Shown here piece by piece: positions 21,449 through 37,509 of a stretch of 64,000 bases of DNA. Every line of letters begins with the position of its first letter. Position 1 is the first letter of the stretch. The notes beneath the pieces were generated by a model. The model did no database searches. It worked only from the letters and a program-made list of their open reading frames with translations, and had not been told where the DNA came from. This DNA comes from Mesoplasma syrphidae (GTDB lineage: Bacteria > Bacillota_I > Bacilli_A > Mycoplasmatales > Mycoplasmataceae), in assembly GCF_002843565.1 (NCBI RefSeq), contig NZ_CP025257.1, positions 310,001 to 374,000 of the forward strand. The letters run 5' to 3'. A program made the position numbers and the translations under genes.

Positions 21449-24400
21449 ATGAAAGTATTACTAGGATTGTTATCTGCATTAACTGTAGGAGAACAAGCAA
21501 CAACTATGTTGATGTCAACTAATCTAAGTCATAGTACCAAGACCAATGAACAAGATATAATTAAGGATTATGAAATAGTTGATCGTGCGGTTGTATATCT
21601 TGGAGCTAAAGTTGAGCAGTCTTTTTTTGACAAAAAAAGCGGTGCTACTTTTTGACGTGGGCTTTTTAGAAAAGAAAAACGTAACCGATTGGCTTACACA
21701 AAAATGAAGGCAGATTACTCTGGTTTTGAAACCTACAAAGCAATAGATTCAACTACAAATGAAAATGGTTGAGACGGACCTGGAAACAGAGCAAAAAAAG
21801 CTATGGGCATTGACTTAAAAGATCAAACGATTTTTTATGCAGCCAATGATGAAGTTTTTTATTTTAGTGAAAAGGGAATAACAAAATTTGAATGAAATAT
21901 TCAAAAAAGCAATGAAAATCAGTCAGATGGTTTAGTTGAAGGAATTGCTGGTGGAGTTAATGGTCTTTTGGCAGGATTTGGGGGTCTTTTGACTCCAGCA
22001 AAGCCAACTCCAATTGATTCAACTGGAGAAGAAATTATTTTGTTAAAACCAGAACAAGAGACAGTAAAAAATGCTGTTTTTTCTGAGGTTAATAATGCTA
22101 TTTATTATACAACTGTAAGTAGCATTGAAAATATTTGAAGAATAAATAGGCTTGACTATGAAACTTTGAAATCAACGGTAATTGATTCTGGACCAATGAT
22201 AGGTGAAAATAATTATCCAGCTTTGGCAACTTCAAATGATTCTGATACAGGATTTGTTTATTCTGTTTTGTCTGGAAATATTTCTTTGATTAATGGGGAA
22301 AATATTCAAGTAATTCATCAGTATAGTGATTCTAATCAAGCAATTAAGGTTATTGCTGAAAAAGATGGAATGTGAATTGTCAATGCCAGCAAAAAAAATG
22401 GTGTTGTAAATTTAGAAAATACTATTAGCTATTTTGTAGACATTGTTTCTAAAGAAACTAAAAAAGTGGCTGAAACAGGAACGTGAATTGAAGATGTTGT
22501 TTGAATTAATGATTTAACAAAATATACAATTTTCAATAATCAAGTAAGGATAAAATCAACAAATAATGCCTCATCAGAATATCTGTATAAGCAAACACCA
22601 CTTCCATCCACAAATGAATTTAGTGTTAAAACAGTAGAAGGCTATAGTGGAATTTTTGATTATGCAGTGAGTTTTCAAACAGATGAAATGTTTCGACGCA
22701 AAGGTGGGATTTTAGGCGGTGGAAAGTGAGACGGAATGTATGTTAACCGTACCATCAGCGATAAATTTCAAGAAGCACTACGATTTACCAATCTTGGAAA
22801 TCAAGAAGGCCAACTTGAATATTCATTGGGAGAAAAAGACGAAGTTTATGTTTGAGCAGATCCTGAAAAGCATGCAATTAAAATTACGGGCAATTCTTAT
22901 ATTTCCAAAGTTACATTATTAGATGAAGATAGTGAAGAAGAAATTGATGTAGTGTTGGAATACAATGATAATGACAAGTTCTGATCAGTACCGATTGTCA
23001 AGCCGGGTTCTGCTAAAGGAACTGATATTTTAATTCAGTTTTATGATGAAGAAAATCCTGAATTTAAAAAAGAAGCTCGCTTAAAATTGAGAGATCGCCA
23101 AAATGTCCAAATCGATTTAAGTTTGCCGGAAAACTCAATTGAAAATAACTTGAAAGTCAGTAATGAAACAAAAGAACCTGAAATTTTTGCAGCGATTAGA
23201 GAAAAGTTTGGCCTAAATTTGACCAATAATGATATCAATATTTTTTTTGAAAAAGCCACTTACAGCACTCCAGGAAAAATAAAAATTGAAGCAAAACCTG
23301 AATCTCATTTAGTAATCAAAAGCCAGGAAATAAAAATTCCAACCTTAGTACTTGACATAGAAACTTTTAGGTTTGAAAATTTAACGTCTTTAACAGACGA
23401 AGGCGAAATTCGCAATGCTGTTACTAAGCAATTGAAAGCTGCTACAGATATGAATTTAGATGTCGGCAGCAATTATGATTTAGATTACGAACCCGCAACT
23501 CAAACAGAAAACGGATACATTGATATTAAAGCAAAAATGAATTCAACTTTATTTATTAATAGTCAAAGGATAGTTTTATCAGCTAGCGGAGCTATTGATT
23601 TGGCAACCTTATTAGTTCATGAGAATATTCAGCTATCAAACGACATAACTAACGAAAAAATTTTGGAAATGATTAACAAGGCCATAAAAAAAGAATTTCC
23701 AAACTCAGATGAGATAAGCTTAAGTGATTTGATTATTGAAAAATCTGAAGCAAAAATAGGAGTCAAGGGTTCATTATATATTGCAGCTGATCCTGATACT
23801 GCTTTAATCAAAAATTCAGTTACACTAGATATTCCATGACTAAAATTTGACTTAGATAAGCTTTCGGTACAATTTGATAGTAATGAAGCAAACCAAGAAA
23901 ACTTCTTAAATCAAATTAATGCAATTCAAGGATTAAAAAAAGTTGCTAATAAAGATTTTGATTTTACTATAAATAAAGCGACTATCCAGAGTGAAGGAAA
24001 AATTGTGCTGACCGCCAATAAAAATTCAGAATATCTAGTAGGAAAAAAAGTTATTAGTATTCAGAAAATTTATGACTTGTCAACTGCAAATTTGTTTGAT
24101 GACTTAAAAGTTTTTAAAGAGACTAATGTTGATGACATTGTCGAATATTTAGCTAATAAAAAAGGCTGAGAAAAGGTTTCAGAACTTGATCTTGAAGTTG
24201 CAATTTCTAGAGATTCATCTTCAACTGAAGAAGGTATGATGCTAATTAAGGCGTCGTCTAATTCAACAAGAATTCAAAATCAGAAAGAAGTTGCTATTTT
24301 GAGAGATCGCCAAGATTTAAATGAGATTATCTTAGAAAAGGATAATTTTATTGGCAATATTACTCCAAATGATGTTGAAAATAAAACTGAAGAACAAGTA

Positions 24401-25840
24401 TTTGAGTTTATCAATAAATTGCTAATTAAAAAATATCCAAATATCAAACTTGATGAAATTTGATTGAAAGGCTATGACGAAAATGAAATTGAAATTGCAG
24501 CAAAGCCTGATTCAGAGGTTTACAAAAATTCAGCGACAGTAACATATACCTATAAAAGAGACTTAGAAGTTGAGATTCCCGAAGAAAAAAGAAGTCTGGG
24601 AATTAAAGATATCACTCCAACAGTTGCTGCAGTTAGAGAACATTTTGCTGATTTGAATTTTAATTGGGAACAAATAGAAATAGATATGAATACCAAAGAA
24701 AAAGAAAAAATTATTATATTAAAGGCTAAAAAAGATGCCAATTTTTATAAGGGAAGTGTGGAAATTAAATACGCCATTCCTGAAGATTTACAAGAAGTTA
24801 TTAAGGAGAAAAAATTAGGTAAGATTTCTAATTATAAAGAGAGTAATATTAAAGCGAAATTGCAAGAATTAAACCCCAATTTGGATATTGAAGCAGTTAA
24901 AATTGAAAATATAAGAAATGAAAATGCTAATTCAAGTTATCAAATTGTTAACAAACACTATATTGCCACTATTGAATCAGCCAACGAAGAAATTTATAAA
25001 AATTCGGTTGAGATTACTTTTAATGTTGATGAGGGAGAGGCTGAAGATTTATCAACAGTTATTAAAAACAAAACTATCAGTGTACCTTATGGGAAGACAA
25101 CAGAGATAGATACAATTAAGAAAGCAATTAAAACACAAAACCCTTATCCAACAATTGACTGAGACCTAATTGAACTTAAATTTAATGACAAAAATCAAGT
25201 AATATTACATTCAAAAAATGTCAATTATTATTATGGGGAAGTGGTCATTACAGTTAAAGAATTGGGAAAAAACTTAGCTGAAATTATAACTAAAAGTAAA
25301 ATTATTGTAGAGCATGGGAAGACTCAAGATAAACAGATTATTAAGCAAATTATTGACAATAAAAATGGTCACATTAATTGAGATGCCGCCGAGATTGAAT
25401 TTAAAGATGGCAAAGTTTATTTAGTATCAGTAAATCAAGAAGTTTATGTTGGTGAAATTGAAATTATTGTTGGTGAGCTTGGCCCAGAGCTATCAAGCGT
25501 GATAAAAAAACAAGAGATCGGAATTTCTTTTGCCAATAGGGGTAATCAAGAATCAATCAAGCAAGCAATTATTGAAGCTAATAAAGAACTTGGAATTAAA
25601 TGAGCACAAATCAAATTTACTTTTAATTCTGATGGAACAGTGACTTTATCTACGTTGGACCAAGATGTCTATATGGGAGAAATAGTTCTTTCAATTTTTG
25701 AAATCAACGAAGAAAAGGAGACTTATACAGTATTGATTATTTCAGTTATTGGGGTAGTAAGTTTTGCAACTTTTATTGCCTTATTATTATTGCTATTAAA
25801 AAGAAAAGACAAAAAAGAAGAACAAGATTCTCAAAAATAA
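21449..25840 (+). CDS. Giant modular surface protein with C-terminal membrane anchor
   Basis: A 1463-residue protein. It starts with a short hydrophobic leader without lipobox Cys (MKVLLGLLSALTVG), after a strong GGAGAG ribosome binding site. Residues about 40-480 look like repeated beta blades (NAIYYTTVSSIENIW, TGFVYSVLSGN). From about residue 560 to 1430 there are around eleven diverged modules of 70-80 residues. Each ends in a strand pair such as IEIAAKPDSEVYKNSATVTY, IATIESANEEIYKNSVEITF or YLVSVNQEVYVGEIEIIV. The pattern resembles the mollicute lipoprotein-associated repeat domain. One hydrophobic helix (about 1431-1453) and a short Lys/Glu tail anchor it in the membrane. Adhesion is a reasonable guess, not shown. 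Trp is mostly TGA. Confidence 0.82.
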
Positions 25841-26920: not shown

Positions 26921-27510
26921 AATTGCTTGTCGCTAATATAGGTATGTATAGGTATGTATTTAAGATTTTTTAAGTAGAATTTTGTAGTATGTAAAACAAT
27001 TTTAAAATTTGGGGGCTTTAAATAAAAAAAATTTTATTTAAAGTTTTTTATTTTTTGAATAAAATACAAAAAATATTAGTTTTATTAAAGTGCTCGATTT
27101 ATACTTCCGCTGTTTAGAATTTTGCAAACATTTGTAGAAGTAAATAGTAAGATAGTGCTGATTTAGTCGTTCAAAAAATAAGAAAATTTTAAAACTGATA
27201 AGTCAGTAATTGATATTTTGATTAAATATTATTAGAAAATTGTATGTAAAAAAGGTATCTCAAGTTTAAACTAAGTCAAAAATAAAGGCAAATATTGCAA
27301 ATAGTTGTCAATTCAAAATTCTCAAAAGCCTATTATAAAGAACATTATTAAAAATTAAGTAAAAATATGTTTTTAGATAAATATTAAACTGACATTTAAA
27401 TTGCGAAAGTTAGCAGTTTTTAAGCATACTACAGGATTAACTAAACCCAAAATTTTTATACTAGATACTTGCTTTAAAGTTTTTTAAATCCACAGAAAAT
27501 TAAAAAAATA
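26921..27510. other. Long intergenic region with a hairpin and a short tandem repeat
   Basis: About 590 bases without a recognisable gene on either strand. It holds two head-to-tail copies of TAGGTATGTA near 26939-26959, then the guaC terminator hairpin (27016-27049). The remainder is AT-rich and may be decayed coding sequence. Confidence 0.4.
27016..27049 (+). terminator. Terminator of guaC
   Basis: Perfect 12-bp arms CTTTAAATAAAA and TTTTATTTAAAG around a 4-base loop, followed by a 6-T run. The arms hold only two G/C pairs, so the hairpin is weak for its length. Confidence 0.65.
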
Positions 27511-27550
27511 AGACCTTTTTGGTAAAGGGTCTTGTTTTTTTTTTTTTTTT
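27511..27550 (+). terminator. Terminator with 15-T run before the ABC gene cluster
   Basis: AAGACC / GGTCTT arms with additional TTT/AAA pairing, then T at 27536-27550. The T-run is followed by G and TAAAAT, a possible -10 for the ABC operon. Confidence 0.8.
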
Positions 27551-27598: not shown

Positions 27599-28858
27599 AT
27601 GAGAAATAAGAACCTTGACAAAAGTTCTTTGCTATTTCAAAAAAATTCAGTTGTGGCCGTAGATTTTCACAAAAAATTTAAGGATATCGATATTGGACCT
27701 TTCTCATTTAATATTGAAAAAGGCAAAGTTACTGCCTTGTTGGGAAGCAGTGGATCTGGTAAAAGCGTGTTTTTGAACTCACTCTTGGGAGCGACATTAA
27801 ATTATAATGGAGATATTTATATTAATGGAAAAGAAAGAAAATCATCAAGCTCAATTGAAAATAATGCTAATGTTGGGTTTTATTCGCAAATGGATTTTTC
27901 ATTGTACTCAATTTCAGCTTATGATTTTTTAAAAAATATGTGTAATGTTATGGGACTTGATATGAGAATTGCTGATAGCAAAATTGAATATTGACTAAAG
28001 AAATTTGATTTGTGATCTGCAAAAGATAAATCTTTAAATGCTTTTTCATGAGGGATGAAAAATCGTATGAATTTAATTTTGTGTTTCATTAAAGAACCTG
28101 AAATTTTAATTTTAGATGAGCCAGGAGCAAATCTTGATTCAAAATGAAGAAACTATGTCTATGAAATTCTTAAAGAGTTTAAGGAAGAGTCAGAATGCAC
28201 TATTATACTAACAGTTCATAATATTGATGAAGTTTATGATATTATTGAAAACTTTGTTGTTCTTGAAAAAGGAAAATTAGTTTTTTCAGGTACCAAAGAA
28301 GAGTTAAATTTGTACAAAAAATTAAAGCTGTCTTTTGAAAATGATATTAGTATTGAAAATGTTGAAAAGCACTTAAACGAGCATAATATTTTAACTTTTG
28401 AAACTAATAAAAAAACTAGTAGCATAATTGTTGGTCTAAAGAAAGAACAAACGTTTAATGATGTTCAGGCAGTACTTAACAAGTATAGTACTAAGGCCGA
28501 AAATATTATCGCTCAGACAATTAATATTAGTGAGATTCAGAAAGCACTAAAAGACAAAACATTACCGCATATTCCAAAATATCAGCCAATTACTTATGCT
28601 GAAAACTTTAAAGATAATGATAAGCAAATATTTATCTATGAAGAGTTTGATGAGATCTTGAACGAGCCTGATAAGACTTATTTTTATTCCTTGGATAAAA
28701 AAACAGATTCTAGAGAAACCAAAATACGAAAAACTTCATTTGAATTAGGGGTAGAAATAAATAAAGATATGAATAATGAAATAAGTAAATCGGCAAACGT
28801 TGATTGTGACATTTTAAAACGCATCAATGATATTAAAAAGCGACTAAAAATTGTTTAA
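27599..28858 (+). CDS. ABC transporter ATP-binding protein with C-terminal extension
   Basis: A 419-residue cytoplasmic ATPase, expected to drive transport through the membrane protein two genes downstream. The nucleotide-binding domain (residues 15-235) has Walker A GSSGSGKS (49-56), a Q-loop near VGFYSQMD, Walker B ILILDEP, and the H-loop His in TVHN. The signature motif, normally LSGGQ, reads FSWGMKNR with a TGA-encoded Trp in place of the first Gly. About 180 residues follow with no recognised domain. The ABC-2 (drug, antibiotic or polysaccharide export) group is the best fit by overall layout. AAAGGAGA lies before the ATG. First gene of a six-gene unit. Confidence 0.88.
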
Positions 28859-28898
28859 TTAGCAAATAGTAATTTAAGAAAAGGAGAGCAAAAATAAT

Positions 28899-30530
28899 AT
28901 GAAAAGACTGCTAGCAATTTTAGGTGTCGTGGGGTTAAGCGTGACAACAACTACAACGGTAGTTTCTTGCAATGTCAAAGATAGGTTTACCGAAAAAATT
29001 TCCAGCATTGAGAAGAAATTAAAACTGCTTTTGTACTCAAAAACTGAAATAGCCGAGCCATGAGAAAAAGAAAAGTTAGAAAAAGCCATTATTGATCAAA
29101 AGATTGATAAAGCTGGAGGAATATCTGTTGATGTTGGTAAACCAATTAGCCCTGGAGCTAATACACAGTTTGAGCAAAAAATAACATTTATTGGAAATGG
29201 CAAAAATGAAAACAACTTTACATACTCAGGCAAGATTACAATTGCATACGCGTATGGTGAAAATTTGCCTCCGGGTAAAATTAAGATTACCAAAAATGAT
29301 GTGGAATCTTCAATTGCAAGTTTGAAAGATTTTTTAGAGGGCACAACTTTTAATAATAAAGAGCTGGTTCAAAAAATTTTTAAGTCCAATAGAAATATGC
29401 CGGGCGCACCTACAGAAGGAATAATGTTTGGAGAAGTAATCAATTTAACTATTGAAAATTTTTCACCAGCAAGTAACGGACAAAAAGACTATCAAAAAAA
29501 TAGAGAAACTGTAAGGTTTAGTTTCGAAGCAAATGTCGGCTTAAAAGATGACGAACAGTATAAATTTGCAAGTGATGTTGACAATGGGTTTAGAAAATTT
29601 GAAGGAAAAATGTTAATGCCGATTATCATAAACGAGCAAAAAATAACTGAGCTATCTGCCAAAATAAAACAACAAGCTCAAACATGAATATTTTTAGATA
29701 TAAATGTTTTTAGAAATGAAATTAAAACTAAAATTGAAAATATTACTTTTGATGATGGCATCTTGTATGACTCACTTTTTGTAAAAAAAATTGAAGGAGA
29801 TGCTCAAGCAAACAAGTCTTATTGAAATGTCGAGATTGAACTAACTTTAAAGCCAAATGTAAATTTGGGATATGAATTTGGTGGCAATGATATAAGAAAA
29901 ATAACAATTCCTGTAAGTTTGTTATCACTACGAAATATTGACAATACTACTTTGTCCTGAAAGCTGTTTGAACAAAAGAACGGAAAAATGTTAATTAATC
30001 CGCAGTTTATAAATTTTGGAAAAGTAGGTCAAAATTTTCTTGAAGATCAAGGTAATTATTTGATTAAAGAAAAACTAACATCAAAATGAGGAAGAGTTAC
30101 AGAAAATCCAGTATCTCCAAATGAGGATCCGTGAGAAAACGCCAACAAAGAGAGTACTGGATATAATGCCAAAATGAATTTCGTATCAAAACTATTAAAT
30201 TCTGGCAATGTGTTAGAAAATCATCTTTTTGTTGAAAAGCATATGAAATATACAACAGCTTTTAATTATGAAAAAGATTTCAATTTGCAAGCCAACGACA
30301 AAGCTCTATTTTTTAATGAAAATGATATTAATTTTGAGGCAAATATAAAAGCTAAGTTGGACAAAACAGGTTCACTAAGCGAATTGCAGGAGCAGACAAC
30401 TATTATTACTAACACAAGTTTGAGTGGTAAAGAATACTATCATATGATTCTGTTATCTAAAAATAAAGATGGAGCATATAAAACATCATCCAAGGTTTTT
30501 AGAGTGCGATTAGAAAGCATAAAACTTTAG
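28899..30530 (+). CDS. Lipoprotein of the ABC cluster (543 residues)
   Basis: Lipoprotein with leader MKRLLAILGVVGLSVTTTT and lipobox Cys24 (VVSC); the rest is predicted extracellular. It is mixed alpha/beta with several TGA-encoded Trp. Two similar segments, roughly residues 125-260 and 265-345, each begin with a helix resembling KNDVESSIASLKDFLEG and continue in strands, suggesting an internal duplication. I do not recognise the family. It lies 40 bases after the ATPase gene and 35 bases before the permease gene, with AAAGGAGAG before its ATG. It is probably a surface component of that transporter: substrate receptor, exported cargo, or assembly factor. Confidence 0.8.
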
Positions 30531-30565
30531 TACTTTATACCAACTGTAGAAAGGAGGTAGACATC

Positions 30566-32368
30566 TTGGAACTAATTAATAACAACACGACTAAGGAAAT
30601 CAAACATAAAAAAAAGCCAAAAAAGCTAATAAAGTATAGCAGAATACCTTTTTTCAAATTGATAAAGTTTAGTTTTAAAAGTATCACAAAGGAGATATTA
30701 TTTTATGTTCTGAATATTTTAGTTTTAATCTCTTCAATTATCATTGGAATTCTGTTGGCGTATGCCAAGTCCGGAGAATCACAGGTCATTATTTTCAACT
30801 TTTATATTTTATTTTTTACTTGCTGTTTAATGTTTGTTTTTATATTAAGGATGATCCAATTCTTTTTCAACAAAAATTTTGAAGATAAAACAACATATAT
30901 TGTATTAACAAACCAAGTTAATCGAGTGAAGTTCTTTCTAGCACAATATATTCTTGTTCTTCTGATTATAATGGTTAATATTATAGGCAGTTTTTTGACT
31001 ATTAATTTATTTTACTCAGCTTTTAATTTGTTGAAGTACGATGTTTTTATTTTGAAGATGACAGTCACATATAGTCTGTATACGCTTTTAGCTACATTTC
31101 TATTAACCAACTTTGTTATCTTTCTAATTTTTGTTTTCAGTTTGCAAACTACAACAATTATTTGTACGTTATTGTTAGCAGTTTCTTTTGTAGCAAATAT
31201 TCCAATGTCATTTGTTAAAGCAAATGAAAAAAGTTACAACATTCAATTTGAAAATAATCAATTATTTAAGCTAAATGATATTTATGATGCTTACAATTTA
31301 AACAACAATGTCAAAAATGGAAACATAAAATATAAATATTTATCAAAGTATATTTATGATTATTTTTTAAATTCTCAAATGACTCAAGAAAGTTTTAGTA
31401 GCAAGCAGACTATTTTGCTCAGAACAGAAATGTGATCAAAATTAGGATTAATAAGAAAAGAGCCAGTAATTGTTAATGAAAGCAATTTGGAATTATTTTC
31501 AAAACCATTAAGAGACAAAACAGTTCCAGAAACTTGAAAAAGTGGTGACAAATTTGATATTCAATTAACTTTAAATGAAACATTTATTAGCAATAATGAG
31601 CTTGAAACTTTAATTTCAAAAGCGACTTCAGAAAATACCAAGAACATATTAAAAGATTTTAAAAATTTTACAAATGAAATAACCGCTCACTTTAATAATA
31701 ATGTGCAATTTGAGAAGTATGATTTATTCTATGATTTCTTGTTCATGGAATCTGGAGTTGATAAGAGTTTTTTAAAAAAAATTAATCCTGGCGGTGGTGA
31801 AAAAGACAAATATGCATTGAAAGATCAAGACTTAAAAACTCTTTATGAATATGCCCTTATTGGTCGTAACAGTGATGGCTTTAAGTTTTCAAATGCAGAT
31901 GACTTAGTCAAAAAGCAGCTTGATTTTAAATTAATGTATACAGCAAGAATATTGGAGCAATACTTTATTAAATACTCAAGCAATTATTTAATAATGTCCA
32001 CAAATTCTATAAAAACATCTTCTGCTGATTGAGACACTTATCAAAATGGACGAAATACAATAGGTATATTATCTTACTTTAATTTATATAGTGGTTTGTG
32101 AATGCTATATACTGAAAACTTGGGATTTTATAATCAGGACATTTGATTTTCACCAAATTCAGATTCAAAAATTTACTTAGAAAATCAGAAAAATATGTTT
32201 CTTGGTTACAAAGAGTACAAATTGGATTTGAATAATCAGAATCGAATTAAAGAAAATACAACAACAAACTATACTAAATCTTGATACTATACTGCCATAC
32301 TCATTGGGATAAGCTTACTTGGATTTACTGTCGCTTTAATTAGATTTAAAAAATATGATTTCAAATAA
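30566..32368 (+). CDS. ABC-2-like membrane protein with large extracellular domain
   Basis: A 600-residue membrane protein, presumably the channel partner of the upstream ATPase. A basic cytoplasmic N-terminus (HKKKPKKLIK) precedes five or six helices within residues 40-215 (for instance LVLISSIIIGILLAYA). An extracellular domain of about 350 residues follows, then one closing helix (about 570-590) and a short KKYDFK tail. This 5-6 + 1 layout with a loop before the last helix is typical of ABC-2 permeases. The start codon is TTG at 30566: AAAGGAGG sits 7 bases ahead and no in-frame ATG precedes the first helix. Substrate unknown. Confidence 0.75.
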
Positions 32369-32394
32369 AAGGTTCAGAGGGCAATAAAAATAAA

Positions 32395-32490
32395 ATGAAA
32401 AATAGTTGAGAAAATAAAAAGCAAAAACAAAAAGCAAAAGGAAAAACTAAAAAACCTAAAAAGGCTAGTCGTTTTTTCAAAATGTATTAA
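32395..32490 (+). CDS. Possible 31-residue Lys-rich peptide
   Basis: A short frame, MKNSWENKKQKQKAKGK onward, with 12 Lys and one Arg in 31 residues, ending FFKMY. It fills the gap between the permease and coiled-coil genes with 26 and 34 bases on either side, and uses TGA for Trp5. GAGGG lies some 15 bases upstream, farther than usual. It could bind nucleic acid or an acidic membrane partner, or be a chance frame in A-rich DNA. Confidence 0.4.
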
Positions 32491-32524
32491 ATATCAACCA
32501 ACCAAAAGTGAGGAACTATTAATT

Positions 32525-33958
32525 ATGATAACAAAGTTGAAAGAGAATTTTTATATAGAAAAAAATGACAACTTTTTCTGCATTAAAGATTTCAAAAATA
32601 ACATAGTAAAGATATGTAGTAATTACTTGGATGCAATTATTGAATTAGAAAGTATTTACAACAAATCCATTACAAATAATGACTATAATCTTGAAGAAAA
32701 AAAGCAAAATTATTTAAAAGATAATAATACCATTAGTGACAAAAAGTTTGACAAAATAGCAGACCTAATTAATTTAAAAATTAGCAATTTGGAGCACATT
32801 TTGAAAACTGAAATAGCACATAGTAATTTAAAAACAAAAAAACCAGGCGATTTGAATACTGAAAATAATAAAATTATAAATTATGTCTCAAGTGAAGATG
32901 AAAAATCCTCAAAATACATAGAATCTTTAAGAAAACTTCAAAATAGTTTGAGAGAAAGTAAGTATTTTACTGATAATGAGGATGACAGTTTATTTAAAAA
33001 ACTATCAGAAGATGATAGTTATACTTTAGAAAATGTAAAAAAGAAAATAGTAGACCAACTTGAATGAGAAATTGATGATGTTAAAAAGCAATGCAAGGAG
33101 CTTACTTTAGAAAACTCAATTTGTGACAGCAAAATTAATGACTTACATAATAATTTGGAATCAGTCATTTTAAATTTAAATAAAATTAAAGAAAACTGCT
33201 TGGAAAAAGTTTCAAGGGATGAACTTTTTGACAGAGAACAAAAGATTATTGACAGTTTTCAAATAGCTTTAAATAAAGAAATGAAGTCATTTGATTCTGA
33301 CATTTCAATAATAGAACAGACAATTCAAAGTTTAAAAGAAAGTAACAATCAATTAGTCCAGAAAGATGTTTTTTTTAGCTGTCAAGAAAAACTAAAAGAA
33401 GAGATTAATGATCTTGTTGATAGAAACAATCAAGAATCTGTTGAATTATTGAACATGCTAAGAACAGAAATTTTTAAAAATAAAAAAGCAACTGATGAGC
33501 TAACTGAAAGTGTCAACAGTTTGATAAGTTACTCAGATTTAGAAAAATTGAAAGACGAAATTTTTAACAAAATCCAAAATCTTGAAGCGACTGCCAAAAG
33601 AACAGATTTTAAGTCAGAAATAGAAGATATGAAAAATGTAGTGGCTCAAATAAGCGAAGAAATAAAAAGTAACAACTCAGCAACTACAGATTTTGTTTCA
33701 CTGGATAAAGTAAACAATATCAAATTGGAAATGTTTAAAGCTTTTCAGGATGAGTTAAAACTTACAAAGTCAAACTATGAAAAAAAACTAATGGAAAATA
33801 ATAAGAAGTATAAAAAAGACTTTGACTCTTTGAAATTGGAATTTGTTGAATCTTTAGATTTGCTTTTAGCATTAAATGGAAAAGTTAATGACTTAGCTAC
33901 AGAAGAAAAGTTAAAAGAAATTAAACAAGGAGTAAAAGTCAATCTTGGAAGTCAATAA
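32525..33958 (+). CDS. Cytoplasmic coiled-coil protein of the ABC cluster
   Basis: A 477-residue protein without signal peptide or membrane segment, so cytoplasmic. The first 60 residues form a compact part (FYIEKNDNFFCIKDFKNNIV). From about residue 75 onward it is largely alpha-helical, with strong coiled-coil heptads from about 175 to 465 (LEKLKDEIFNKIQNLEA, FDSLKLEFVESLDLLLA). I do not recognise a family. The operon position suggests a scaffold or filament under the membrane that organises the ABC complex, but this is inference. GAGG lies 12 bases before the ATG. Confidence 0.75.
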
Positions 33959-34007
33959 AAATTATTAGAAAAGTAAGATATGAAGCATTACAGAAAAGGA
34001 AAATGAA

Positions 34008-36041
34008 ATGAAAAAATTATTAACAATATTGGGAGCAGTTACTTTAACTGCAACTGCTGGTTTATCAGTTGTTGCTTGTGGAAATAAAGATGACAAAAAT
34101 GTCAATCCAAATCCTGAGCAAGGAAAAGAAGAAATTAATAAATTAATAAAACAATTTGAAAATGAAGTAATTACAAAGTGAACTTCAGTTGTTTCAGCTC
34201 CAATCGCTGATAGCGCAACGCTTTTAGAAAGTGAAGCTAGTAGCAATAACTTAGCTTTCTTTGGAAAAGATAACTTAGAAGATGTTTACAATAAGGCAAA
34301 AAGCGAGATTCCTAAAGTACTAGATGAATCCGAAACTCCAACACCAGTTAATTTTTACAAAGTTTTAGATGATAAGCAAAAAGATACTCTAAAAAGAAAT
34401 ATTGAATCATTATTATCACCTGCTTCAAAAGTTAACAATCTAAAAAAATCAATTAGTGCCTCTATTTATCAAATTATCATAGGATCATTGGGGCAAAACT
34501 GAATTCAAAATATTGCCTTTGATTATGAAACAGCATTATTAAATTATACCAAAGTTGAAGGAGACAGTTTTCTTTCAAATCTTGAAATTAACTATTCTTC
34601 AAAATATTCTTACATGGATGCAGAAGATAGCAAGCAAACTAAAACTATAAAAGGAACTGTATCAATCACAATTTCTGATGACAAAATTATTGTAGAAACA
34701 ATCAAAAATATTCAAGAAAATTTTGCGGCTAATTTGTTAAAAGCAGGAAATGATTCAGTATGAATTGATAAAAATGATTTAAATATTGATTCTATAGAAA
34801 CTGTTGGTGGGAAATCTGAAAAATACAAAATCGCTTTGGAAGAGTACTATAAAAAATTAGCTAAAAATATGGTTAAAAATATTGAAAAAGACTATTTTGC
34901 AAATAGTGAAAGCAATATCTTGAAAGCCGTAAAAGTTTCTATAAACGATCCTGAAAATGTTGTAAGAAGTAGCTCTAAAAGAAGCGAAATCGGATCTCTT
35001 AATATACAAAAAATTAAACTTACAAAATTGATAGGGCCAAAAAAGGGAATAATTGATGCAAATGAAATAAAAAGACAAAAAATGTATTTTGGTGCAGTAA
35101 ACGAAGATATATCAGTTAAATTGGCTGATGGCGTAATTGCCAAAAATAAGATTTTATTTGAAGATTTGCAAGCTTCATATAAGGAAGCACAAAAAGATTA
35201 CAAAACCACTTTTGAAGCAGAGTACAAAGAAATTATTAAAAACTCTACTGTTGAAGAATCAGCAAATATTGAAAACTTAATGAGTGCTTCAGTTTCTAAT
35301 GAACAGGCCGGAATTAAGGGAATTCAGTTTGCTCTAAAAAATGGTTATACGCAAAAACTAAATGATATTAAAGTCAATTTATCTGTAGCTGTTGACAAAA
35401 CATCAAATACTGAAAATGAAATTGAAACTAACAAAATTTTTGCCGCTTACTATAGTGGCGCTGAGTTGGCCCTAAAAGAGTTTCACAAATTTTATGGTAT
35501 ATCACCAACTGACATTGATGAATTGTCAAATGATGCAAAACTTGAAGAAAAAGGTCTTCTATTTTATATGTCAGGAAAATCAGGGGCTAAGAAAGCAGAT
35601 GGAACCGACTTTAATATATGGGATTATTGAAAAGGATTGAGCAATGACACAACTTTCCTGAAAAAAAGACCATATAGTGATCAAGTTACTAAAGGATTAA
35701 ACCTAATTGCTGACAATGATCCTGAAGTAGCAAAAATTAAAAATGAGTATTTTTTAAGTAAGTTGAAGGGAATGGATAGTTTCAATTTTGAATATATTCA
35801 AACGGCTCCAACATACTGAAGAAATTTAAAATCTTTTTCAATTGCAAATGTTAATTCTGATATATTGAAAGGATTGCAAACTACAGGTGTTTCTGTTCCA
35901 AGCGGAGGTAATTACTATCAAACACTAGAAATGATAATATCAAATGACCTATTTAATGTCACATTGGGTGAAAGCGGTCAAGATGGAGATGTCTTTTTTG
36001 ATGACGGACACGTAGTTTTTACAATGATTGGAATGAAATAA
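34008..36041 (+). CDS. Lipoprotein of the ABC cluster (677 residues)
   Basis: Last gene of the six-gene unit. Leader MKKLLTILGAVTLTATAG with lipobox Cys24 (VVAC) followed by a hydrophilic linker. The extracellular part is long and mixed helical. It has a mid-section rich in Lys and Ser (residues 280-340) and a C-terminal region with FNIWDYWKGLSND and FEYIQTAPTYW. It may belong to the paralogous lipoprotein families that mollicutes carry in many copies; I cannot name the family with confidence. AAAAGGAAA lies before the ATG. It converges with the PadR gene at a shared bidirectional terminator. Confidence 0.8.
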
Positions 36042-36070: not shown

Positions 36071-36099
36071 AAAAAAACCAAAGTAAATTTGGTTTTTTT
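36071..36099. terminator. Bidirectional terminator closing the ABC cluster and the PadR operon
   Basis: Perfect 12-bp arms AAAAAAACCAAA and TTTGGTTTTTTT around a 5-base loop. It overlaps the stop codon of the convergent PadR gene. Confidence 0.8.
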
Positions 36100-36406
36100 A
36101 TTGATTTAGCAAGTTATTAATTACTTTATGAAATTCGTCTCATTCTGCCTTGTTTTTTTGCAACTCAGCAAAACCATCTTTGGTAATTTTATAATATTTT
36201 CTTGAAGGTCCATTTTGTGACTCTTCAACGTAATATTCAGCATATTCCTTAATAATCAATTTTTTAAAAATAGCATAAGACGTTGACTCATTTGTTTGAA
36301 TAACGCCATTTAAAGCTTTGTTTAATTCATATGCGTAATAATTTTTTTTGCTCAAAAAATGTAAGACCAACATTTCTAAAACACCTTTTTTTAATTGTGT
36401 ATCCAT
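36098..36406 (-). CDS. PadR-family transcriptional regulator
   Basis: A 102-residue winged-helix repressor. It begins MDTQLKKGVLEMLVLHFLS, the typical PadR opening, continues with YYAYELNKALNG, and has the recognition and wing region ESTSYAIFKKLIIKEYAEYY and RKYYKITKDGF. The last 14 residues follow a TGA-encoded Trp. Its ATG overlaps the stop codon of the upstream membrane protein gene by one base, so the two are translationally coupled. In Firmicutes such PadR proteins commonly accompany HAAS-domain membrane proteins and control the pair in response to envelope stress. That regulatory role is inferred here. Confidence 0.9.
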
Positions 36407-37509
36407 TAAACAACCTCACCTGAGTTATTTGGCTTAAAGTTATAAAAAATTTCATATCTTTCAAAACTTGTTACACCCACAATTGCATTTCATGGCAAAT
36501 TTGAAGATAAGTAAATTTGATAGTCATTATTATTTGAAGAACTTAAATTAACAACGTCAACTTTTGTATCAAGCGTATATTTTTCTTTAATGTTATAGTG
36601 TCTAACTAATTTAATAGACCCATATTCCAAGGTTGAATCAAATTTCTCATTAGTGTTTCGAATCATTGAAGAACTTAATTCATCGTAAATAAGGTGTACA
36701 GCAGAAGCATCCTTAATTTCATCAGCAACATTAATTTCAGTTACCTGAGAGTAACGGTAATTATTGTTATAGTTTGAAGCCAAAACGCTATTTTCTGGTG
36801 CTAAGTTTATTGCTGCTCCAAAACCTGTAATTATTGCAAAAGTTATTGCAGAAATTAGCATAATTTTGTTAATCATTGATTTTTTGAAAAGCATGGCAAA
36901 TGGACGCTCATCAGTATAGACAATAAAAATTCCGTTTATTATTACTTTTGTAGACTTTTCAAAAAACTTAGCAATATATCAAAGTGCTATTGTCAGTAAA
37001 GGAACTAATCCTAGGATTAGGACAAATAGGCTTATTGCAATTGCAAAGTCATAAGTGACAAAAAAAATTGTTATCATAAATGGAAAACCAATTACTAAAA
37101 CAAATGCCACAAGATAAAGCGCAGCGCTTATTAATGCCAAAGCGATAGCAAAAATGCTCATAATAAAATTTGGAAATGTAAAAGCTAGCTTTATTCCAAC
37201 AGATTTTCCCTGCGGTTTTTGAACTTTAACCTTTTCGACCTTAGTTTTTTGAGTTTTGCTTTTTTTCTCATGCTTTGGTTTTGCATTATAATCTATACCA
37301 AGTTCTAAGTAGATTTCACGAGCAATGACTTCAGTATTTGAAAGCTGATCCAAAACAATTTGCATGTTTCCTAGCTCATTAAACTCTTCATTAATTTTTT
37401 CTTCATATGACTCTATAATATCATTAGCATCATCTTCAGCTAATAGTTTTAGTGCCTTACGCAATTTTTGTAATCATTTCTTTTTTAATTTTATTTCTTT
37501 CTTATTCAT
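36406..37509 (-). CDS. HAAS-domain (DUF1700-type) membrane protein
   Basis: A 367-residue membrane protein. Residues 5-72 form the helical HAAS-type domain (KWLQKLRKALKLLAEDDAND, then LGNMQIVLDQLSNTEVIARE). A very basic linker (about 75-95) follows, then three or four helices between residues 100 and 180, another helix near 210-230, and an extracellular Asn/Ser-rich beta domain. HAAS proteins are usually partnered with PadR regulators, as here, through a one-base stop/start overlap. The ATG at 37509 has GGGAG upstream. Function is probably envelope sensing or stress response; direct evidence is lacking. Confidence 0.78.

What the first reader, a model, noticed from the sequence alone, without database searches (positions are those of the whole stretch)
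27599..36041. Six-gene ABC/lipoprotein/coiled-coil unit: candidate undescribed surface or export system
Seen: six consecutive + strand genes, gaps of 26-49 bp, most with their own ribosome binding sites. They are bounded by a terminator before (27511-27550) and after (36071-36099), with no internal terminator found. They encode an ABC ATPase with a 180-residue extension, two lipoproteins, an ABC-2-like membrane protein with a 350-residue ectodomain, a Lys-rich 31-mer and a cytoplasmic coiled-coil protein. Known: ABC-2 systems export diverse cargo. Inference: a membrane-spanning machine with an inner scaffold (coiled coil), motor, channel and two surface lipoproteins. I know of no named system with this gene set.
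Basis: partly seen in the sequence, partly recalled or inferred. Interest (0 to 1): 0.7.

Follow-up and report, generated by a model that had tools for sequence, protein, structure and literature searches.

The report
ABC motor with surface lipoprotein partners
Insect-associated wall-less bacteria (Mesoplasma and Spiroplasma relatives) share an undescribed ATP-driven membrane machine made of a motor, a membrane protein with a very large outer part and one or more surface lipoproteins; some relatives carry a dozen or more copies, and what it moves or does is not known.

Summary
The six genes are real and placed as described. Across Mycoplasmatales genomes, 64 of 65 ATPase homologues lie beside a homologue of this membrane protein; the exception borders a stretch that reads N. 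An LP2-type lipoprotein lies nearby in 53 of 65. Identity falls from ATPase (median 49%) to permease (32%) to lipoprotein (16%), and the three diverge together. LP1, the coiled-coil gene and the 31-mer are clade-specific additions; in Mesoplasma a coiled coil is fused to the ATPase. The membrane protein is predicted to have a six-helix ABC-2 (type V) fold, nearest NosY (Z 20.2) and PmtD by sequence, with about 350 residues inserted between TM5 and TM6. The permease and lipoproteins have no significant Pfam family, and the LP2 model has no PDB match. All catalytic ATPase motifs are kept, but the signature reads FSWGM instead of LSGGQ. Two relatives carry 12-14 copies. Best reading: a type V motor that moves an amphiphilic cargo to, or does mechanical work on, surface lipoproteins. 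Cargo and direction are inferred. New variant of a known kind.

The parts
27502..27541 (+). terminator-like hairpin with T run, upstream boundary
27599..28858 (+). ABC ATPase (419 aa), ABC-2/DrrA-GldA-ABCA-like NBD; Walker A GSSGSGKS, signature FSWGM, Walker B ILILDEP, GANLD, VHN
28899..30530 (+). LP1, lipoprotein (543 aa); found only with the subfamily of this permease
   Evidence: LP_plasma signal
30566..32368 (+). PERM, ABC-2/type V membrane protein (600 aa), elbow helix 29-41, TM1-5, ectodomain about 222-570, TM6
32395..32490 (+). K31, Lys-rich 31-residue ORF, conserved only in M. seiffertii; coding status unproven
32525..33958 (+). CC, predicted cytoplasmic coiled-coil protein (477 aa)
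   Evidence: heptad periodicity z 6.0 against shuffles; homologues
34008..36041 (+). LP2, core lipoprotein (677 aa), mixed alpha/beta predicted fold
36071..36100 (.). A/T-rich hairpin between convergent LP2 and padR genes, probable shared terminator
   Evidence: read in sequence; below the scan's G-C threshold

Best explanation
A dedicated type V (ABC-2) ABC machine of Mycoplasmatales. SHOWN by sequence and synteny: ATPase, membrane protein and LP2-type lipoprotein form a co-inherited core. PREDICTED: the membrane protein is a six-helix NosY/PmtD/ABCG-like domain with a ~350-residue ectodomain inserted between TM5 and TM6. INFERRED: two ATPases and two membrane proteins form the motor; ATP-driven movement is coupled through the conserved cytoplasmic TM2-TM3 motif to TM2/TM5 and the ectodomain, moving an amphiphilic cargo (lipid, lipopeptide or hydrophobic peptide) from the membrane to the outer face, where LP2 (and LP1 here) receives it, gates it or gives specificity. 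The coiled-coil protein is inferred to organise or regulate the motor from the inside.
For: 64 of 65 ATPase ORFs of 270 aa or more have the permease adjacent on the same strand (52 within 100 bp), and 53 of 65 have an LP2-type lipoprotein near. Distances co-vary in 25 non-redundant triads: Mantel r 0.72, 0.81 and 0.69, 0 of 999 permutations. Full-length LP2 in 27 of 45 family genomes with the permease and 0 of 14 without, p 3.7e-5. LP1: 11 full-length copies, the same genomes and counts as the 11 close permeases. Permease profile to PmtD E 9e-4; model pLDDT 82.8; NosY Z 20.2, rmsd 3.6, 267 aligned of 269 residues; ABCG2 Z 17.6. Top PDB NBDs are ABCA3/ABCA1. TM2 and TM5 are the best conserved helices (1.71 and 2.02 bits against 1.2-1.5); these line the pathway in ABCG-type exporters (established knowledge). 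All catalytic motifs kept. Mesoplasma ATPases carry a tail of about 540 residues with heptad periodicity z 5.0.
Against: No cargo, direction or complex is shown. The nearest fold, NosY, belongs to a complex thought to do mechanical work rather than classical export (own knowledge). Foldseek gave no PDB match at E <= 0.001. TM2/TM5 conservation could reflect dimer contacts. The signature substitution (W/F/Y for the first Gly) could slow ATPase turnover. LP2 is not detected next to the motor in 12 of 65 cases, among them the g12, f5 and f9 loci.
Confidence: 0.5

Rival explanations
1. Mechanotransmission machine: nothing crosses the membrane; ATP-driven movement of the ectodomain changes the shape or activity of surface lipoproteins (adhesion, enzyme activation, surface remodelling), as proposed for NosDFYL and MacB/FtsEX-like systems.
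For: NosY is the top fold match (Z 20.2). The ectodomain is as conserved as the membrane part (1.58 bits; 29 of the 40 best columns, about 23 expected from its length). Lipoproteins are usual partners.
Against: Different insertion site from MacB (ectodomain between TM5 and TM6, six TMs); NBD and TM1-5 resemble exporters.
Confidence: 0.28
2. Peptide or antimicrobial export or immunity pump of the Pmt/LnrLMN kind, with the lipoproteins as accessory immunity proteins.
For: PmtD sequence match of TM1-5; the ATPase matches PmtA and lantibiotic-protection models below cut-off; multi-copy expansion in some genomes.
Against: No precursor peptide or processing gene was seen to travel with the core; K31 is limited to two species; no two-ATPase two-permease layout.
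Confidence: 0.15
3. Importer in which the lipoproteins are solute-binding proteins.
For: Lipoprotein beside ABC genes is the usual importer layout in mollicutes; S. citri Sc76 is such a lipoprotein (PMC4804543).
Against: No solute-binding family in LP1 or LP2; LP2 model has no usable PDB match; the permease model matches type V folds.
Confidence: 0.05
4. Chance neighbourhood of unrelated genes.
For: The six-gene set as such is found only in two species.
Against: Conserved adjacency, copy-number match and co-divergence.
Confidence: 0.02

Closest known systems
NosDFYL (nitrous oxide reductase maturation ABC complex)
   Same: NosY-like six-TM domain over its whole length (Z 20.2), separate ATPase gene, a lipoprotein partner (NosL, own knowledge)
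   Different: NosY (269 aa) has no 350-residue insertion; the LP2 model is mixed alpha/beta; no copper link seen
PmtABCD phenol-soluble modulin exporter
   Same: TM1-5 sequence match to PmtD (E 9e-4); ABC-2 half-transporter with separate ATPase
   Different: PmtD is about 250 aa without the ectodomain; Pmt has two ATPases and two permeases (own knowledge); no modulin genes seen here
ABCG2 / ABCG-type exporters
   Same: elbow helix, six TMs, extracellular element between TM5 and TM6 (class features in PMC8386196)
   Different: ABCG loop is short and the NBD is fused (own knowledge); here about 350 residues and a separate NBD with lipoprotein partners
ABCA lipid exporters (ABCA1, ABCA3)
   Same: closest solved NBDs by sequence; large extracellular domains
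   Different: ABCA is a single chain with ectodomains after TM1 and TM7 (own knowledge)
MacB / type VII
   Same: large outer domain; partner proteins outside
   Different: four TMs (PMC8386196) with the outer domain between TM1 and TM2 (own knowledge); here six TMs, insertion between TM5 and TM6

Membership tests
Type V (ABC-2) ABC transporters | NBD with Walker A, Walker B, D-loop and H-loop | tested here: met
   the signature is FSWGM, an unusual variant
Type V (ABC-2) ABC transporters | six TM helices in ABC-2 arrangement, preceded by an elbow helix | tested here: met
   predicted model, helix 29-41 and six TMs; NosY Z 20.2, ABCG2 Z 17.6; PmtD E 9e-4
Type V (ABC-2) ABC transporters | extracellular element between TM5 and TM6 | tested here: met
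   present but enlarged to about 350 residues; whether it keeps the re-entrant helices of the class was not tested
Type V (ABC-2) ABC transporters | ATP-driven transport | not testable with these tools
   needs reconstitution
NosDFYL | NosY-like membrane domain | tested here: met
NosDFYL | periplasmic beta-helix NosD | tested here: inconclusive
   the LP2 model is alpha/beta; LP1 was not folded
NosDFYL | copper lipoprotein NosL and NosZ client | not tested
   no NosL or NosZ family hit among the neighbours scanned, but the genome was not searched for them
PmtABCD exporter | two ATPases and two permeases in one operon | tested here: not met
   one of each
MacB / type VII | four TMs with outer domain between TM1 and TM2 | tested here: not met
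Binding-protein-dependent importer | lipoprotein of a solute-binding family | tested here: not met
   no solute-binding Pfam or NCBIfam match
PADLOC defence systems | system-specific genes | tested here: not met
   only generic ATPase matches; none for the other four proteins

The most novel reading that the evidence does not exclude
A new class of ATP-powered surface machine in wall-less bacteria in which a type V ABC motor with an inserted ectodomain drives dedicated lipoproteins on the cell surface mechanically (not by classical transport), with a coiled-coil linkage on the inner side, and which has been expanded into a repertoire of variable surface lipoproteins in some relatives.
Probability: 0.22. 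Interest if true: 0.8.

Novelty: new variant of a known kind. Interest (0 to 1): 0.5.

Why it matters
The core is kept or multiplied in 45 of 60 family genomes in a group known for small genomes, yet the permease and lipoproteins have no significant Pfam family and no paper found here describes them. It ties large uncharacterised surface lipoproteins of Mesoplasma and its relatives to a named motor, so their function can be tested as a unit, and it adds an architecture (large insertion between TM5 and TM6 plus lipoprotein partners) to type V ABC proteins.

Tried and rejected
Importer/solute-binding reading: no binding-protein family. Anti-phage defence: only generic ATPase hits. Homology between the ectodomain and LP2, or between LP1 and LP2 beyond the signal peptide: none detected. 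Sequence homology between the coiled-coil gene and the Mesoplasma ATPase tail: none detected, so equivalence rests on architecture. DUF1508-like N-terminus of the coiled-coil protein, suspected by eye: no Pfam support. LP2 fold: best Z 5.0, i.e. no usable match; absence is not evidence of a new fold. Plasmid carriage: no tblastn match, weak because of the TGA code. Literature searches found no description; most subscription papers are not held. None affects the results. In G023 (793,224 bases) the region next to the ATPase reads N and was not pursued.

Full report
OBSERVATION. The window lies in a 908,214-base genome; the same-genus genome G002 is Mesoplasma seiffertii ATCC 49495. Read with code 4, the six + strand ORFs are at the stated places with gaps of 26-49 bp. 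A terminator-like hairpin precedes them and an A/T-rich hairpin follows between convergent genes. In M. seiffertii the same neighbourhood is kept: guaC-like gene, ATPase, LP1, permease, 31-mer, coiled-coil gene, LP2, then convergent padR and HAAS genes.

WHAT THE PROTEINS ARE. The ATPase is an ABC_tran protein whose best models include the ABC-2 type ATPases DrrA and GldA, below their cut-offs, and whose best solved relatives are the NBDs of ABCA3 and ABCA1. The permease and LP2 have no significant Pfam match, alone or across their family alignments. LP1 and LP2 carry the mollicute lipoprotein signal. The coiled-coil protein shows heptad periodicity (z 6.0 against shuffles).

THE CORE. I searched relatives with the ATPase, took stretches of up to 20 kb and mapped genes with profiles. 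Of 65 ATPase ORFs of 270 aa or more, 64 have the permease adjacent on the same strand, 52 of them within 100 bp; 53 have an LP2-type lipoprotein near. A few places are read twice in overlapping loci, and the loci were chosen through the permease, so the fraction is approximate; the loci were chosen mainly through the ATPase and show the same. The single exception, in G023, borders bases that read N. Profile comparison shows that the lipoproteins next to the permease in different clades belong to one family (LP2 against the Mesoplasma LPm 99.4%, LP2 against the g11 lipoproteins 99.5%). In 25 non-redundant triads the median identity is 49% for the ATPase, 32% for the permease and 16% for the lipoprotein, and the distance matrices correlate (0.72, 0.81, 0.69; 0 of 999 permutations). 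Shared species history contributes to such correlations.

DISTRIBUTION. The permease profile matches 61 of 320 genomes of the order: 45 of 60 in the window's family, strongly in two further families (f5 and f9), and weakly in a few others. Across 392 genomes of the phylum, hits outside the order are weak and cover only parts of the membrane region, mostly in frames of 270-300 aa, which suggests that an ordinary ABC-2 permease gained the ectodomain (inference). Full-length LP2 occurs in 27 of the 45 family genomes with the permease and in none of 14 without (p 3.7e-5; only three candidates per genome were scored, so absences are soft, and related genomes are not independent). LP1 has 11 full-length copies in nine genomes, exactly matching the 11 closest permeases. 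The coiled-coil protein is found by sequence in 3 of 60 genomes, with more distant relatives next to other copies; in Mesoplasma relatives the ATPase itself carries a tail of about 540 residues with heptad periodicity. The window's genome has a second, divergent copy of the system within G000:C1:650000-665032. Genome G013 has 14 ATPase copies and G030 at least 12, some with internal stops, in tandem or dispersed lipoprotein-permease-ATPase triads. That these two belong to the Spiroplasma citri clade is my guess from genome size and content; their names are not given.

STRUCTURE. AlphaFold2 gives a confident permease model (mean pLDDT 82.8): an elbow helix, TM1-5, an ectodomain of residues about 222-570, then TM6. 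VIA-align ranks NosY first (Z 20.2, 267 residues, rmsd 3.6), tied within 1-2 units with other NosY entries and a mycobacterial efflux pump, then ABCG2; Foldseek finds the same folds only weakly. Helical bundles reach Z of about 13 by common arrangement alone, so the margin is real but not large. Sequence profiles find PmtD (E 9e-4), which agrees independently. Type V features are given in PMC8386196. The matched residues are mainly the membrane part; the ectodomain fold remains untested. LP2 is predicted as a mixed alpha/beta protein (pLDDT 81.7) with no usable PDB match.

MOTOR. Walker A, Walker B glutamate, D-loop and H-loop are intact in the family. The signature reads FSWGM in nearly all family-f1 copies, with F, Y or L in place of W in a few and S in the distant ones, so an aromatic residue usually replaces the first glycine of LSGGQ. 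This is a clade marker whose effect on turnover is unknown.

MECHANISM. Shown: a co-inherited core. Predicted: the fold. Inferred: ATP-driven movement acts through TM2/TM5 and the ectodomain on a cargo and on the lipoproteins. TM2 and TM5 are the most conserved helices, which fits a transport path but also fits a dimer interface. NosY as nearest fold, and an ectodomain as conserved as the membrane part, fit mechanical work. I rate amphiphile handling with hand-over to lipoproteins first, mechanical work second, peptide export or immunity third.

NOVELTY. The motor is a known kind. The TM5-TM6 insertion, the dedicated lipoproteins, the occasional coiled-coil linkage and the copy-number expansion make it an undescribed variant as far as I could search. 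The library holds mainly open-access papers, so an earlier description elsewhere cannot be excluded.

Noticed in passing
L068:13764-14903 (-); L069:8531-9625 (+); similar-sized genes in L070 and L071: Proteins of 360-380 aa with two predicted TM helices and a C-terminal HU/IHF DNA-binding domain (PF00216, 1e-14 to 1e-16) downstream of LP1 in Mesoplasma clusters: apparently a membrane-anchored HU-like protein.
   Followed up: partly
L039:12502-12987 (-); L049:7154-7645 (+): PTS EIIA_1 domain proteins (E 1e-16) encoded between lipoprotein and permease, or just before the permease, in the second copy of the system; by eye the usual active-site histidines look replaced, which suggests a regulatory use.
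   Followed up: partly
ATPase family, window 27599-28858 and homologues: ABC signature motif LSGGQ is FSWGM (aromatic for first Gly) across most of the family, with all other catalytic motifs kept.
   Followed up: partly
window 21449-25840 (+): 1463-aa surface protein with repeated Spiralin domains (PF05215, 4 stretches) and a C-terminal TM helix, just upstream of the guaC-like gene.
   Followed up: no
window 36098-37509 (-): PadR regulator followed by a HAAS-domain membrane protein, convergent with LP2; the same arrangement is kept in M. seiffertii.
   Followed up: no
LP1 residues about 27-117 (window 28899-30530): This region matches tandem units of about 90 residues in other lipoprotein genes of G004, G015, G022 and G027.
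   Followed up: no
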